A DNA stretch of 36,237 nt from Candidatus Methanoperedentaceae archaeon HGW-Methanoperedenaceae-1 (GTDB taxonomy: Archaea; Halobacteriota; Methanosarcinia; Methanosarcinales; Methanoperedenaceae), in NCBI GenBank assembly GCA_002839545.1, contig PGYG01000006.1, positions 1-36,237 on the forward strand. The letters are read 5' to 3'. Below, piece by piece: positions 7,674 through 36,085 of the stretch. Numbering within the stretch: position 1 is the stretch's first letter; each line of letters starts with the position of its first letter. A program made the position numbers and the translations under genes. The notes under the pieces were generated by a model. The model was not told the DNA's origin, did not search any database, and worked only from the letters and a program-made list of their open reading frames with translations.

Positions 7674-9893
7674 ATGGACTCCACAGAACTAACTGTTGCA
7701 AAAGCCTATCCCAACGATTCGAAAAGGGGGATTGCACGCCTCGACCCGCATACAATGATGGTCTTCCAGCTAACACCAGGAGACATCATAGAAATAGAAG
7801 GCAGAAAACGCACGGCAGCCAAAGTATGGCGCGCTGACAGGAACGACTGGGACCAGGACATCATACGTATTGACCATTTTATCAGGAAGAATGCAGGCAT
7901 AGATATCGGCGACAAGGTCAGGATACAAAAAGTCGAACCGAAGAATGCGGAAAGTGTCGTTCTTGCACCGTCAGAAGGTAAACCCATCCAGTGCAGCGGG
8001 GATGCAGAAGAGATGGTGAAACGCCAGATTATCAAACACCCTGTCATCAAGGGCGATATTATACCGGTTATGAGCACGATGACCCATCCCTTCCTCGGAA
8101 TTGTGGGGACAGGGCAGGCAATACCGTTAATCGTTGTGGAATCCGAACCTGATGACATCGTACTGATTACCGAGAAAACAAGAATCACACTCAGGGAGAA
8201 ACCTGTGGTGATGGATGTCATAGGAACGGGAATTACGTATGAGGATATAGGCGGTCTTCGTGATGAAGTCCAGCGCCTGCGGGAAATGATGGAACTGCCG
8301 CTTAAACATCCTGAGGTATTTCAAAAACTGGGCATCGAATCCCCGAAAGGCGTGTTAATGTACGGACCCCCCGGAACCGGGAAAACCCTTATCGCAAAGG
8401 CTGTTGCTAACGAATCAGGTGCAAATTTCTTCTCAATAGCAGGACCTGAGATAATGAGCAAGTATTACGGCGAAAGTGAACAGCGCCTGCGGGAAATTTT
8501 CGAGGAGGCAAACAAGGAAGCACCGTCGATTATTTTTATAGATGAACTTGACTCAATTGCCCCGAAGCGGGAAGAAGTTACAGGAGAGGTTGAACGGCGT
8601 GTCGTGGCGCAGCTTCTTACCATGATGGACGGGCTTGAGGCGCGGGGAAATGTCGTTGTTATCGGCGCAACCAACCGCATAGATGCCATTGACCCTGCAT
8701 TGCGGCGCCCGGGCAGGTTTGACCGTGAGATTGAAATCGGGGTGCCTGACAGGGCTGACAGGATTGAGATATTCCAGATTCACACACGAGGAATGCCTCT
8801 TGCCGAGGATATTGATTATAAATATATTTCCGACAGGACGCACGGGTTTGTTGGCGCTGACATATATGCGCTGGCAAAAGAAGCTGCCATGAAAGCCCTC
8901 AGGAGATACCTGCCCCATATAAAACTGGATGAGGCGGTGCCGCGTGAAGTGCTTGACACTATGGAGGTTACAGCCAGTGATTTTGAGGAAGCGCTTAAGG
9001 AAGTTGAACCTTCTGCCATGCGGGAAGTGTTTGTTGAGGTTCCGAGGGTTTCATGGAATGAAGTCGGCGGGCTTGATGCTGTTAAACAGGAAATCGTGGA
9101 GGCTGTCGAGTGGCCGCTTGAGAATCCTGAGAAGTTCCTGAAAATGGGTATCAGACCCCCTAAAGGAATATTGCTTTACGGTCCGCCGGGAACCGGGAAA
9201 ACCCTTCTTGCAAAAGCAGTGGCTAATGAGAGTTCTTCCAATTTCATAAGTATCAGGGGTCCGCAACTGTTATCTAAATGGGTTGGTGAATCTGAAAGAG
9301 CCATCCGCGAAATATTCAAGAAGGCACGGCAGGTTTCACCGTCTATAATCTTCCTTGATGAACTTGATGCCATTGCACCCGTGAGGGGAGGCGATGGCGG
9401 TTCGAAGACCTCGGAGCGTGTGATTAACCAGCTCCTGACCGAACTTGACGGCATTGAGGTATTGAAGAACGTTGTCGTGATTGCTGCAACGAACCGACCT
9501 GAGATTATTGACCCTGCCTTAATCCGTTCGGGACGGTTTGACAGGCTTGTTTTTGTCGGACCGCCTGGCAAGGCTGGTCGGAAGGATATTTTCAAGATTC
9601 ACCTGAAGAACGTGCCCGTGTCTGAAGATGTGAATGTTGATGAACTGGCTGACCTTACTGATAATTACGTTGGGTCTGATATTGAGTCGCTGTGCAGGGA
9701 AGCCGTGATGCTGGCGCTTCGGGAGAATTTTGATTCTGAAGTTGTTGAGATGAGGCACTTCCGGGATTCGCTGAAGAAAGTCAGACCTGCGCTTGTTGAG
9801 GGTATGCTTGAGTATTACGAGAAGCTCCAGGAACAGTTTAAGGGCGGTGTGCAGAAGAAAGAGGAGCATAAGTCTTACATCGGGTACAGATGA
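7674..9893 (+). CDS. Cdc48/VAT-type AAA+ ATPase
   Basis: 739 residues, the usual length for archaeal Cdc48 (p97, VAT). The N-terminal substrate and cofactor domain (about 1-190) begins with the double-psi barrel. Two AAA modules follow. D1 has Walker A GPPGTGKT at 231-238 and Walker [14 protein letters not shown]2 has Walker A at 503-510 and Walker [13 protein letters not shown]. The arginine-finger regions ([13 protein letters not shown] and [13 protein letters not shown]) are intact in both. It forms a hexameric cytoplasmic unfoldase that can feed the proteasome. The last three residues are GYR; the penultimate Tyr recalls the HbYX proteasome-docking tail, but the residue before it is Gly rather than a large hydrophobic one. 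Monocistronic. Confidence 0.97.
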
Positions 9894-9974: not shown

Positions 9975-10604
9975 ATGACAAACAATAAGCCAAAAATTTT
10001 AGTGCTGTTTTATTCGATGTACGGACATGTGTTTGCGCTGGCAAATGAAATCGTTAAAGGAGTGGAAGAAGCAGGAGGAATTGCTGTTTTGAAACAGGTT
10101 GCTGAATTGATTCCTGAGGCGAACTGGGATGATAATATCAGGAATGCAAAGGAATTAATGAAAAATATCCCTGTAGCCGACCCTAAAACTGACCTTGAGG
10201 GAATCGATGGGATAATTGTCGGGACACCAACAAGGTTCGGGAATATGTCTGCGCAGATGAGGAATTTCTGGGACAGGACATCTTCAACTTGGCTGGCAGG
10301 GGGTTTGGTAGGCAAACCTGCTTCGGTATTTGTGAGCACAGCCACACAGCACGGGGGACAGGAAACTACCATTATTACGACCCTGGTAACTTTGCTGCAT
10401 CATGGTATGGTGTGTGTGGGATTGCCGTATTCTTACCAGGAACAGATGAGGATTGATGAAATTACAGGCGGTTCCCCGTATGGCGCATCGACTATTGCAG
10501 GCGGGATGGGCGAGAGGATGCCGTCAGTGAATGAGTTGAAACTTGCGAGGGATCTGGGCAGGCATCATACTGGAATTGCAGGGAAGCTGATGGGGAAAGT
10601 TTGA
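9975..10604 (+). CDS. WrbA-like NAD(P)H:quinone oxidoreductase (flavodoxin fold)
   Basis: 209 residues, full length for the WrbA family: FMN-dependent two-electron reduction of quinones in the cytoplasm. Signs are the FMN phosphate loop at the start (VLFYSMYGHVFALANEI), the family signature PTRFGNMSAQMRNFWDRT near residues 80-97, the TATQHGGQETT loop, and the SPYGASTIAGG region near 170. The ATG at 9975 has an AGAGGG site just upstream. Its stop overlaps the TTG start of the next small gene (TTGA), so they form an operon. Confidence 0.93.
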   Translation: MTNNKPKILVLFYSMYGHVFALANEIVKGVEEAGGIAVLKQVAELIPEANWDDNIRNAKELMKNIPVADPKTDLEGIDGIIVGTPTRFGNMSAQMRNFWDRTSSTWLAGGLVGKPASVFVSTATQHGGQETTIITTLVTLLHHGMVCVGLPYSYQEQMRIDEITGGSPYGASTIAGGMGERMPSVNELKLARDLGRHHTGIAGKLMGKV

Positions 10605-10804
10605 AAAAAAACTACATACGGATAATTGGTTTAATCTTCTGTCTTCCATTCATATATTTGCTCATTGCATGTACGGCTACTCAACCCGTATCATTAATTA
10701 TACCGTGTGCAGTGGGTGCTGGAACAGGTTTAGCAATTCAGGTGGATATTGCTTTAGTTATTGGTCTTTACCTCTTGTTTATAGGTGTTAGGAAAGGCGA
10801 ATAA
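10601..10804 (+). CDS. small two-helix membrane protein
   Basis: 67 residues starting at a TTG that overlaps the wrbA-like stop codon. There are two hydrophobic segments (about 5-24, RIIGLIFCLPFIYLLIACTA, and 28-60, SLIIPCAVGAGTGLAIQVDI onward) and a basic/acidic tail. It is too short to carry an enzyme domain and I recognise no family. The coupling to the flavoprotein gene suggests a shared transcript. The TTG start is inferred only from the overlap; the frame has no ATG start at its beginning. Confidence 0.5.
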   Translation: MKKNYIRIIGLIFCLPFIYLLIACTATQPVSLIIPCAVGAGTGLAIQVDIALVIGLYLLFIGVRKGE

Positions 10805-10808
10805 GAAT

Positions 10809-10872
10809 AACGTTTATAGGTAAAAACGGTAACAAGCCCTGTGTCCTTCAAGTACGGGGTATAGGTGACTGC
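10809..10872 (+). repeat. 64-bp dispersed repeat, copy R1
   Basis: A gapless 64-base match to 33483-33546 with 10 differences by my count. Both copies contain TTTATAGG near the left end and GGTATAGGTGACTGC at the right end. In the frame that starts with ACG at 10810, most differences are third-position or conservative, and both copies stay open, but no ATG start is visible here. It lies between the wrbA-like operon and the convergent Ntn hydrolase operon. Confidence 0.6.
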
Positions 10873-10929
10873 ATCCAAAACTCGTTTTGTGCATCGCCCT
10901 TAACTGAAAACGGGCATGTTTTTGAAATA

Positions 10930-11088
10930 TTAGAAAAGTTTACCATTTTTTATTTGTTCACTCAACGATTTACGTAGCTTTTTTTCTCCTTTTTTATAAG
11001 AATCTATTTGAATCCCTATTTTCAAATCTTTTAAGAATTGTTCCCTTAATGAATAATACCCCTGTATTTCTCTCTTTTCAATAAACAT
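10930..11088 (-). CDS. 52-residue basic protein, coupled to the Ntn hydrolase gene
   Basis: This short frame starts at an ATG directly after the stop of the Ntn hydrolase gene (TAA then ATG) and is preceded by GAGG within that gene's last codons, an arrangement that strongly suggests translational coupling. The product is rich in Lys, Glu and aromatic residues (start MFIEKREIQGYYSLREQFLK), has no hydrophobic segment, and is probably one or two amphipathic helices. No known family is recognised. It could be a regulator, adaptor or substrate of the enzyme. It is AT-rich like its partner. Confidence 0.6.
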   Translation of the reverse strand: MFIEKREIQGYYSLREQFLKDLKIGIQIDSYKKGEKKLRKSLSEQIKNGKLF

Positions 11089-11859
11089 TTAACCAACCTC
11101 TATTTTGATTTGATTCAATTTGTCGTTATTTTTACCATATTGAAGTTCTTCCATATAGATATTTGTGAGAATACTTAAATCATCATCGGAAATATTCTGT
11201 ATACCATCTTCTGTTAAAACTAGGAGCTCTGTTTCTTTTCCAACCCCACCACCCGCTTCTGCATTTTTTTTTGCCTTAAAGACATTATAAATTGTAGTCA
11301 ATACTGGGTTTGTTTTTGAATGTTTTTGAAATAATAAAGTGTTTGATGCCTGAATCGCACCCGACCCTATTGCATGAAAATTCATGGACCTAAAATCTAT
11401 AATCCCACTTTCTTCAATATTTGTTATTTGGGCTTCTGAATCTCTGAACCCAGTTAGTAAAATAGATGTATTTAATTTGAATTCTACGACTTTTGTTAAA
11501 ATAGTATTAACGAAAACATTTGGAACTTCTTTTTTTAAAGAATCTACAACAAATTCTTGATTTATCCCATAAGAATTAAACACTTCATTTTCAAGGATTT
11601 CTTTTCTTTTCTTTTTAAAATTGTCGAATATTTTTAATTTCATTTGATCATATTGAATATTATTATCATCTAATTTAATTAAATCATCAAACAACAATGC
11701 TTGTCCTGCCAGCATTGCAATGGTGTTTTTATTGAGTTTTGAATATTTGAGAATACTATGTTCAAACTCCCCCATATTTGTTGTAACCATGTGGTCTGTA
11801 GTGAAAATGATGTATTCTTTATCATTTTCTTTAGCAATAGCTGCAATACAAATCGTCAT
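11089..11859 (-). CDS. proteasome-fold Ntn hydrolase-like protein
   Basis: 256 residues from the preferred ATG at 11859. The start MTICIAAIA puts Thr at position 2, which becomes the N-terminal nucleophile once Met is removed. Asp22 (IIFTTDHMVT) and Lys38 (ILKYSKLNKNTIAMLAGQ) fall where proteasome beta subunits carry D17 and K33. The GSG near residue 165 (AIGSGAIQASN) and GGGVGKETELLVLTEDG near 215 match the later S129/S169 regions. The longer frame from 11883 adds eight residues, but a TATA box 26 bases before 11859 favours a leaderless start there. It is not a standard 20S subunit, HslV or connectase as far as I can judge. It is AT-rich, in a two-gene operon with a 52-aa protein. The substrate is unknown. 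Confidence 0.65.
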   Translation of the reverse strand: MTICIAAIAKENDKEYIIFTTDHMVTTNMGEFEHSILKYSKLNKNTIAMLAGQALLFDDLIKLDDNNIQYDQMKLKIFDNFKKKRKEILENEVFNSYGINQEFVVDSLKKEVPNVFVNTILTKVVEFKLNTSILLTGFRDSEAQITNIEESGIIDFRSMNFHAIGSGAIQASNTLLFQKHSKTNPVLTTIYNVFKAKKNAEAGGGVGKETELLVLTEDGIQNISDDDLSILTNIYMEELQYGKNNDKLNQIKIEVG

Positions 11860-11880
11860 AAATATGAAAACATTGTAATA

Positions 11881-11889
11881 CATATAAAA
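11881..11889 (-). promoter_or_regulatory. TATA box of the Ntn hydrolase operon
   Basis: Minus-strand ttttatatg. Its centre is about 26 bases upstream of the ATG at 11859, so transcription would begin at or beside that codon (leaderless). The alternative ATG at 11883 lies inside the box, which argues against it as the start. Confidence 0.45.
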
Positions 11890-12119
11890 AACTTTCTATT
11901 TAATTTCCATGCCCCCTTTAATTTGCACACCATATGCACCCTCCGTGATGCATCGGAATTGATTCCGGGGTAGTGACCACAAACATCAATTTTCGCACAC
12001 CTCGCCGAACCCCTTACCGTAAATTTAATTTATGTTAAACACCAGTAGTTTTTAGTTTAATGACAGCGTAAACAGAAACGTTATATGCAGATTAATACAT
12101 TATACAAAATGAGGTAACT

Positions 12120-33646: not shown

Positions 33647-36085
33647 ATGCTAGAAACGATTATTCTCAATATTCTATCTTCCTTAACATTAAACACATCA
33701 AAATTTGCATTAAATAAAGTGAAAAATTATCAGAATGAAGATAACTACTACTCTCAGACTTTAAAGAAAACGTTGAAGGAATTTGACCTTAAAGCAGATG
33801 ATTTTGATACTGCAAAAAGTATCTTAAATACTTTCATTTCATTAGAAGGGGTTACACAAGAAGCTTTCAAATCATTTTTAAATAAAGAATTTCCTAATAA
33901 TAAAATTTCATCTGGAGAATTTTATAAGTCTTTTATTAATAATATCCATAGTGTATTAATGACGGATAAATATTTTAGAAATTATGTTGTTGATAATTTA
34001 ACAAATATATCTATACAGATGCAATATTTATCTAAATCTCAAGAAAAAATAAATGATTTTGGATTAAATATAACAGTATTATTAAAAACATTACATCAAA
34101 TTTCAAGTGAAATTAAAAATGAAATGGAAAAAAATGATAATAAAATTATTTCTTATTTAACAAATTTTAGTTATGAAATTTCCAAACAAAATGAATTAAA
34201 ATTTTCATTAATAGAACCTGAGTATCAGAAAAAAATACTTGATAAAATTTCTGAAATTGTTGATGAAATATATCCTAATATAGATCAATTAGAAAAGAAT
34301 CTTCATTTATATAATGAACAAACAATATTAAGATATGGTAAATTAGAATTTTTAGGCTTACCAGATTTCAAAGAAAAACCAAAAATTGAATTAGAAGATA
34401 TTTTTGTTTCTTTAAAATCAGTAGAATCAGAGTCGGATAAGCAGGTACAAATAGAAAAAGTATTGAATCAAAAAAGAAAAATAGTTGTTTTAGGAGATCC
34501 AGGTTCAGGGAAATCTACTTTAGCAAAGTACATTGCTATTATCCACGCAAAAAATAAAGCTGAGGAAGTTTTCAATACTTCAAACAAAATCCCTTTTTTA
34601 ATTACTTTAAGACATTTTGCTAATTCATTAAGGGAAAAAGGATCTGGTTATTCTATTTCACACTATATTATGGATCATTTATTAGAAGATATGAATTTTA
34701 AAATGGATAATCGATTACTTCAATATTATTTATCCATGGGAAAATGTATTGTTATATTTGATGGATTAGATGAACTTACACATGAAGAACTCAGATTCAA
34801 AATAAAGAAAATTGTAGAATCGTTTTCAATATCTTATCCCTTCAATACATTTATTGTTACTTCAAGAATAACGGGATATTATGATACAAGCTTGGACCCA
34901 CAAGAGTTCAATCATTTCAAAATACAAGATTTTTCAGATGAACAGATTAATAAATTTATCAAGTTATGGTATAATGCCCGAGAAACAAGCAACAGAGAAA
35001 GAGACGAAAAAATAAATAGTCTTATTTTAGCAATCCATTCAAATAAAGGAGTTAAGAGGTTAGCATCAAATCCTTTAATGCTAACAATAATAGCTTTAGT
35101 ACATAGAATCGAAGCAGAATTACCCAATGAAAGAGTTAAATTGTATGATAGATGTACTGAAGCATTAATCACCACTTGGGAAAAATATAAAAGAACTAAT
35201 ATAAAAAATATTGGTGATACAAAAAAAAGAAGACGTTTAGAAAAATTAGCTTATGAAATGCAAATACTGTCTAAAGAGGATTTTGAACAAACGGAGATAA
35301 AAACGGTTGAATTAAAAAAATTAATGAAGGATATACTTTTGGAAAGTGAATATACTGATGAAGATATTGCAGAAGATGAAGCAAATCAATTTGTGGAATT
35401 CATACGAAAGAGAGTTGGTATTTTAGTAGAGAGGGGGCATGGAATTTATAGTTTTGTCCATTTAACATTTCAGGAATATTTTGCTGCCTGCGATATTTCT
35501 AAAAGATATATCAGTAATTTAGATCAAATGTGGGAATTGATTGAGCCTAAATTAATAGACAGTCGTTGGAATGAGGTAATGTTATTATTAATGGGAAAAT
35601 TAGCTGAATATGATGAACCATTGAAAGATATTTTAACAAGAATAATAAATAAAAATGATCCTGAATATGATAACTTTATTTTTGATGTCTTGAACGATAA
35701 TATTGATATGCCTTATTTGATTAAAATAAATAGTATGGGCTACCTCATTCAAAGATCTTTGATAAAATTTGACATTAATCAACTTACAAATACAATTGTT
35801 AATCCTTTTATTTTAAAAAATCCATCACAGTTATTAATAAATATAAATAGATTATCACACACAGATGATTTTATATCTGTTTTAAAATTAAAATTGAAAA
35901 ATGAGGAAAATACACATAATTTCTTCAGACACATGAGTTATATAAACAATGCATTAAAAATTGGACAAATTGCTTCTCAATATGATAATTATAAACCCAG
36001 TGAAGAATTATTAAGTTTAATTATTAAATATAAAAACTTTAGTAAAAAGGGTGATTATTTTACTATAGAAGATATGATTCCTTAG
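33647..36085 (+). CDS. NACHT (STAND) NTPase, NLR-like defence protein candidate
   Basis: 812 residues. The N-terminal part (1-275) is helical with coiled-coil features (LLKTLHQISSEIKNEMEK) and holds no recognised effector enzyme. The NACHT module follows: Walker A GDPGSGKS at 283-290, Walker B IVIFDGLDEL near 372 with the DGLDE form, VTSRITGYYD as sensor-1 region, NPLMLTIIALVH, and the HLTFQEYFAA box near residue 605 typical of NACHT proteins. The last 190 residues are AT-rich-coded, helical and may be the sensor. Prokaryotic NACHT proteins can act in antiphage defence. Codon use is far more AT-rich than the neighbours, a sign of recent transfer. It is next to a MntA/HepT pair, with pheS in between. 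Confidence 0.88.
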   Translation: MLETIILNILSSLTLNTSKFALNKVKNYQNEDNYYSQTLKKTLKEFDLKADDFDTAKSILNTFISLEGVTQEAFKSFLNKEFPNNKISSGEFYKSFINNIHSVLMTDKYFRNYVVDNLTNISIQMQYLSKSQEKINDFGLNITVLLKTLHQISSEIKNEMEKNDNKIISYLTNFSYEISKQNELKFSLIEPEYQKKILDKISEIVDEIYPNIDQLEKNLHLYNEQTILRYGKLEFLGLPDFKEKPKIELEDIFVSLKSVESESDKQVQIEKVLNQKRKIVVLGDPGSGKSTLAKYIAIIHAKNKAEEVFNTSNKIPFLITLRHFANSLREKGSGYSISHYIMDHLLEDMNFKMDNRLLQYYLSMGKCIVIFDGLDELTHEELRFKIKKIVESFSISYPFNTFIVTSRITGYYDTSLDPQEFNHFKIQDFSDEQINKFIKLWYNARETSNRERDEKINSLILAIHSNKGVKRLASNPLMLTIIALVHRIEAELPNERVKLYDRCTEALITTWEKYKRTNIKNIGDTKKRRRLEKLAYEMQILSKEDFEQTEIKTVELKKLMKDILLESEYTDEDIAEDEANQFVEFIRKRVGILVERGHGIYSFVHLTFQEYFAACDISKRYISNLDQMWELIEPKLIDSRWNEVMLLLMGKLAEYDEPLKDILTRIINKNDPEYDNFIFDVLNDNIDMPYLIKINSMGYLIQRSLIKFDINQLTNTIVNPFILKNPSQLLININRLSHTDDFISVLKLKLKNEENTHNFFRHMSYINNALKIGQIASQYDNYKPSEELLSLIIKYKNFSKKGDYFTIEDMIP

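What the first reader, a model, noticed from the sequence alone, without database searches (positions are those of the whole stretch)
10930..11889. Proteasome-fold hydrolase coupled to a 52-residue protein in an AT-rich island
Seen: a Thr immediately after Met, Asp and Lys at proteasome spacing, later GSG and GGG motifs, a TATA box placed for a leaderless start at exactly the codon that exposes the Thr, and a 52-aa gene that starts directly after the stop with GAGG before it. Known: Ntn hydrolases of the proteasome family need a free N-terminal Thr. Inference: a non-canonical self-compartment or single-ring hydrolase with a dedicated small partner, possibly a defence or stress module. The small partner is easy to miss because of its length.
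Basis: partly seen in the sequence, partly recalled or inferred. Interest (0 to 1): 0.68.

Follow-up and report, generated by a model that had tools for sequence, protein, structure and literature searches.

The report
Viral-mobile proteasome homolog with small partner
This stretch of an archaeal genome holds a two-gene mobile cassette: a little-studied relative of the proteasome (the cell's protein shredder), and right behind it a tiny gene that travels with it even into archaeal viruses, which gives the first clue to what this enzyme family works with.

Summary
On the minus strand, 11089-11859 encodes a 256-aa protein starting Met-Thr. Thr1, Asp17, Lys33 and Gly47 equivalents are invariant in 15 homologs, down to 23% identity. 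Profile search (M. jannaschii proteasome beta, E 1.3e-10) and AlphaFold/Foldseek agree on the proteasome fold. [quoted passage not shown] New here: (1) the 52-aa gene is real. It is under purifying selection, follows the stop codon in 11 of 11 clade members, and in the order occurs only in the four genomes with a full-length close PH. Unrelated-looking small ORFs sit at the same place in three further PH lineages. (2) The pair is mobile: a sister species has 18 bp where the window has 1.4 kb. The pair lies in a Methanobacteriota provirus head module and on two IMG/VR contigs, although Fuchs' table marks no phages for PHI. Best explanation: a mobile Thr-hydrolase whose co-translated small protein binds and controls or assembles it, probably serving virus-host or element-host conflict. 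Binding, oligomeric state, substrate and defence role are inferred. The small protein did not dock confidently.

The parts
11089..11859 (-). Proteasome homolog (PH), 256 aa, MTICIAAIAK...; catalytic Thr is residue 2 (residue 1 after Met removal)
   Evidence: invariant T2/D22/K38/G52, profile match to proteasome beta, proteasome fold
11860..11883 (-). Upstream in-frame ATG extension (8 codons), probably not translated
   Evidence: absent from homologs; its ATG lies within the TATA-like stretch
11881..11891 (-). TATA-like TTTTTTATATG, placed for a near-leaderless start at 11859
   Evidence: Sequence inspection; spacing not visibly conserved in other loci
10930..11088 (-). Small companion gene, 52 aa (MFIEKREIQGYYSLREQFLKDL...IKNGKLF), starts on the base after the PH stop
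   Evidence: conserved position, purifying selection, co-occurrence
11097..11100 (-). GAGG, Shine-Dalgarno-like, 8 nt before the small gene's ATG, inside the PH coding end
   Evidence: similar GGAGG/GAGG in L005, L039, L040, L042
10602..12013 (.). Accessory segment holding the pair: 1412 bp here, 18 bp in a sister species of the same genus; the pair itself has GC 0.28 against 0.42 for the window

Best explanation
A mobile two-gene cassette. Gene 1 is a proteasome-like N-terminal-threonine hydrolase (PHI subfamily). After methionine aminopeptidase removes Met1, Thr1 is free, and with Asp21 and Lys37 (numbering after Met removal) it cleaves an amide bond by the proteasome mechanism. It has no propeptide, so nothing built into the chain keeps it silent or guides its assembly. 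Gene 2, translated from the next codon, supplies a 38-60-residue, mostly helical protein that binds gene 1's product in trans and controls it, as assembly chaperone, inhibitor or lid, doing the work a propeptide does in proteasome beta. The cassette is an accessory module exchanged among archaeal chromosomes and tailed viruses, most likely serving virus-host or element-host conflict. Shown: fold, active-site residues, the reality and tight linkage of gene 2, mobility, viral carriage. Inferred: catalysis, direct binding, mode of control, conflict role.
For: Fold and active site: A3 profile hits M. jannaschii proteasome beta at E 1.3e-10, aligning MT to the mature Thr; AF2 model pTM 0.69 with proteasome strand/helix order; top 50 PDB matches all proteasome, E about 1e-9, probability 1.0; T2, D22, K38, G52 invariant. 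Small gene: 11 of 11 distinct clade-A loci carry a 38-60-aa ORF starting -17 to +52 nt from the PH stop; pN/pS about 0.3-0.4; found only in the 4 genomes of the order with a full-length close PH. Other PH lineages have their own small ORF there: 42 aa overlapping the stop, five loci, under selection; 49 aa in two haloarchaea; 38 aa in L023. Mobility: sister-species site without the 1.4-kb segment, GC 0.28, no conserved flanking genes, tree at odds with family membership. Viral: inside a provirus head module between a Mu-F-like protein and the head protease; on two IMG/VR contigs.
Against: The small protein was predicted at pLDDT 36-49 with no trustworthy docking. Net-charge complementarity between partners fails in Methanobacteriota and haloarchaea. 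Small ORFs of different lineages show no convincing sequence similarity. Proteasome D166/S169 equivalents are not conserved. One PH subgroup (L020-L022) and two lone homologs (L026, L027) lack an evident small ORF. No known defence gene lies next to the pair in most loci, and PADLOC has no match.
Confidence: 0.5

Rival explanations
1. The small protein is the dedicated substrate or tag (Pup-like, or a ligation substrate as for connectase), and the hydrolase processes or attaches it.
For: A small, charged, co-encoded protein beside a proteasome homolog resembles pup next to prcBA (own knowledge); connectase shows that this fold can be a specific ligase (PMC8665760).
Against: No ligase (PafA-like) gene noticed beside it; no shared C-terminal motif across lineages; connectase's S3/S4 insertion is absent.
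Confidence: 0.17
2. Toxin-antitoxin or defence pair: the Thr-hydrolase damages the host or invader when released, and the small protein is its inhibitor.
For: Patchy distribution (full-length close copies in 4 of 186 genomes of the order), mobile segment, AT-rich, viral carriage, two-gene economy.
Confidence: 0.25
3. Virion morphogenesis factor: an extra head-maturation enzyme of tailed archaeal viruses, with chromosomal copies as domesticated or leftover genes.
For: In L088 the pair sits between the Mu-F-like gene and the head-maturation protease and capsid, same strand.
Against: That virus already encodes a head protease; in L082 the pair is separated from the head module by a transposase and a methyltransferase; in L083 and in chromosomes no recognised head genes flank it.
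Confidence: 0.12
4. Ordinary stress or quality-control protease with a small assembly factor; mobility is incidental.
For: Canonical proteasome genes are also present in this genome, and Fuchs et al. found proteasome homologs co-occurring without exclusion (PMC8665760). CDC48 lies close by in the window (7674-9893).
Against: CDC48 is not a neighbour elsewhere; presence in only a few genomes of the order argues against housekeeping.
Confidence: 0.15

Closest known systems
[quoted passage not shown]
   Same: Proteasome core, Thr1/Asp17/Lys33/Gly47, no propeptide, extra helices after H1/H2 before S5. PHI's representative WP_012956871.1 falls between two published M. ruminantium M1 accessions (WP_012956318, PMC7807696; WP_012956986, PMC5059525), and the genome of our clade member L040 has exactly the published M1 size, 2,937,203 bp.
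   Different: That paper reports no informative gene context and marks no phages for PHI; here a conserved small downstream gene and viral carriage are found. Identity of L040 with WP_012956871.1 was not checked letter by letter.
20S proteasome beta subunit
   Same: Fold, N-terminal Thr, D17/K33/G47, GSG
   Different: No propeptide, pore-loop helical insertion, D166/S169 not conserved, dedicated small partner; canonical proteasome subunits are encoded separately in the same genome
Connectase
   Same: Same fold family, methanogenic archaea, N-terminal nucleophile (PMC8665760)
   Different: Connectase lacks H1/H2 and has a two-helix S3/S4 insertion; here helices follow S4 and S3/S4 is a tight turn
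PPH/AAH phage proteasome homologs
   Same: Virus-carried proteasome homologs (PMC8665760); fold matches to Caudovirales HslV/proteasome-like proteins
   Different: Group I, bacterial and phage; no sequence match of this protein in the phage collection

Membership tests
Proteasome-like Ntn hydrolases | Nucleophile Thr/Ser at position 1 after Met or propeptide removal | tested here: met
   Thr2 after the start Met, invariant in 15 homologs
Proteasome-like Ntn hydrolases | Asp17, Lys33, Gly47 equivalents at proteasome spacing | tested here: met
   D22, K38, G52 invariant; aligned to M. jannaschii beta
Proteasome-like Ntn hydrolases | Four-layer alpha-beta-beta-alpha fold | tested here: met
   AF2 pTM 0.69, Foldseek PDB top 50 all proteasome
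Proteasome-like Ntn hydrolases | Hydrolytic activity | not testable with these tools
   Needs biochemistry
20S proteasome beta | Asp166/Ser169 beside Thr1 | tested here: not met
   Positions not conserved in the alignments
20S proteasome beta | Passes the curated family cut-off | tested here: not met
   TIGR03634 15.3 bits against cut-off 224; no Pfam hit for the window protein, although 12 of 15 relatives match PF00227 at E<=0.1
PHI | Helical insertion at the pore-loop site (between H1/H2 and S5) | tested here: met
   Four helices 54-125 between S4 and S5
PHI | Clusters with the PHI representative WP_012956871.1 | tested here: inconclusive
   Accession interval and exact genome size point to M. 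ruminantium M1, whose single match in the search is clade-A L040; sequence of the accession not available
PMI-2 to PMI-6 | Insertion between H3 and H4 | tested here: not met
   Only a short coil between helices 168-175 and 186-200
Connectase | No H1/H2; two-helix S3/S4 insertion | tested here: not met
Known anti-phage defence systems | Match to a PADLOC model | tested here: not met
Pup-proteasome system | PafA/Dop and Mpa next to a Pup-like gene | tested here: not met
   Not seen among the neighbours annotated or read

The most novel reading that the evidence does not exclude
Proteasome homologs of the PHI type and several sister lineages each come with a lineage-specific small controlling protein that genome surveys missed, and the pair is a virus- and element-borne conflict module in archaea: a proteasome-like effector gated in trans rather than by a propeptide or an ATPase.
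Probability: 0.3. Interest if true: 0.82.

Novelty: new variant of a known kind. Interest (0 to 1): 0.6.

Why it matters
Twenty-two new proteasome-homolog families were named in 2021, and the authors found no gene context suggestive of a specific function (PMC8665760). A conserved partner gene and a viral home turn one of them into something directly testable: co-purify, reconstitute, delete, and challenge with virus. If the small protein acts as a propeptide or gate in trans, it shows another way to control a proteasome-type active site.

Tried and rejected
Connectase and PMI-2 to PMI-6: excluded on helix and insertion pattern. Docking of the small protein through a natural read-through fusion (stop read as Gly): low confidence, no claim. 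Folding the PH alone gave a slightly poorer model. Charge complementarity: not consistent. Dispersed repeats flanking the operon: one 28-bp 93% match and two weak short ones in the genome, so not a clear repeat family. Phage and plasmid tblastn: no sequence matches. Profile scan of viral contigs with the L020-L023 group: none. Bacterial genomes could not be reached as a search centre, so whether bacterial PHI members carry a small gene is open. CDC48 neighbour: not conserved.

Full report
Observation. The minus strand of 10930-11883 holds two abutting genes in an AT-rich stretch (GC 0.28 for the pair against 0.42 for the window). The longer ORF could start at 11883, but every full-length homolog begins at the position of the Met at 11859 (MT[ILV]), and the upstream ATG lies in the TATA-like stretch, so the product is 256 aa with Thr exposed once Met is removed. 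The second gene, 52 aa, begins on the base after the TAA, with GAGG 8 nt before it.

The enzyme. Alone, the window protein matches nothing in Pfam and only weakly archaeal proteasome beta in NCBIfam (15.3 bits). An alignment of 15 relatives (A3) matches M. jannaschii proteasome beta at E 1.3e-10, with MT aligned to the mature Thr, and 12 of the 15 match PF00227. T2, D22, K38 and G52 are invariant, at the spacing of proteasome T1, D17, K33, G47; G165 and G167 of the GSG and a GxG at 205-207 are also invariant, while the window's GGG is not shared. AlphaFold2 gave the proteasome order of strands and helices (pTM 0.69), and the top 50 PDB matches are all proteasome entries (E about 1e-9). Between strands S4 and S5 lie four helices (residues 54-125), more than the two of proteasome beta. 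D166/S169 equivalents are not conserved. The genome carries canonical proteasome genes elsewhere.

Which homolog. Fuchs, Alva & Lupas 2021 (PMC8665760) named 22 new proteasome-like families. The pore-loop helical insertion without an H3/H4 insertion fits PHI. PHI's representative WP_012956871.1 lies between WP_012956318 and WP_012956986, both M. ruminantium. The genome of our clade member L040 has exactly the published M1 size of 2,937,203 bp, and L040 is its only match. So clade A is very probably PHI; this is inference, not a sequence comparison.

The small gene. All 11 distinct clade-A loci (window, L002, L003, L007, L004/L014, L015, L005, L039-L042) have an ORF of 38-60 aa starting -17 to +52 nt from the PH stop. 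In the four Methanosarcinales-type loci pN/pS is about 0.3-0.4. A profile of it finds, among 186 genomes of the order, exactly the four that carry a full-length close PH, plus one marginal hit with two internal stops. A separate PH clade (L009, L010, L017-L019) has its own conserved 42-aa ORF overlapping the stop, also under purifying selection. Haloarchaeal L024/L025 have a 49-aa ORF and L023 a 38-aa one; L020-L022 have none evident. The small ORFs of different clades cannot be aligned convincingly. In the fused prediction the small protein forms two helices at pLDDT below 50, so the interaction is not shown.

Mobility. In a sister species of the same genus the flanking genes (an FMN-reductase-like gene and the segment before the PRC-barrel gene) are 18 bp apart, where the window has 1412 bp. 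Insertion here is likely, though loss in the sister is not excluded. Flanking genes differ in every locus, often with transposases nearby. The tree places the window's protein with one from another family (96/91) and mixes viral and cellular copies.

Viruses. In L088 (Methanobacteriota) the order on one strand is terminase, portal, Mu-F-like protein, a 128-aa ORF, PH, small gene, head-maturation protease, SU10-type major capsid. On L082 (a 10.7-kb IMG/VR contig) the pair lies next to a transposase, a methyltransferase, then portal, S78 protease and capsid. L083/L084 is a 76-kb IMG/VR contig. Fuchs' table marks no phages for PHI, so this extends the known distribution.

Mechanism and rivals. 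The lack of a propeptide plus a tightly linked, co-translated small protein suggests control in trans: inhibitor, lid or assembly chaperone. A substrate or tag role, a toxin-antitoxin pair, a virion-maturation role and a housekeeping role remain possible and are weighed in the rivals. Nothing here measures activity, oligomeric state or binding. Bacterial genomes could not be searched.

Noticed in passing
window 33647-36085 (+): 812-aa NACHT/STAND NTPase-type protein (PF05729, E 3.5e-10) in a GC 0.25 island; possible immune or signalling protein.
   Followed up: no
window 10601-10804 (+): 67-aa putative lipoprotein-like ORF in the same accessory segment; a 74%-identical copy of this stretch lies elsewhere in the sister genome (G072:C66), as do matches to window 10805-10860.
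   Followed up: partly
window 10865-10900 and 11930-11980: Palindrome-containing stretches (TGCATCCAAAAC..GTTTTG; GATGCATCGGAATTGATTCCG) on both sides of the operon; the right one has a 28-bp, 93% match elsewhere in the genome.
   Followed up: partly
L005 4001-4731: Methanobrevibacter MAG copy is split by frame changes (MTICISAIC is in another frame at a poly-A run); pseudogene or assembly error.
   Followed up: no
L088 8690-10195 (-): Mu-F-like head protein of the provirus carries a C-terminal ADP-ribosyltransferase-like domain (PF03496, E 1.7e-9).
   Followed up: no
L023 2346-2459 and L029 1662-1811: Two related small ORFs share the motif RAPP[IL]TYD next to PH or PH-remnant genes.
   Followed up: no
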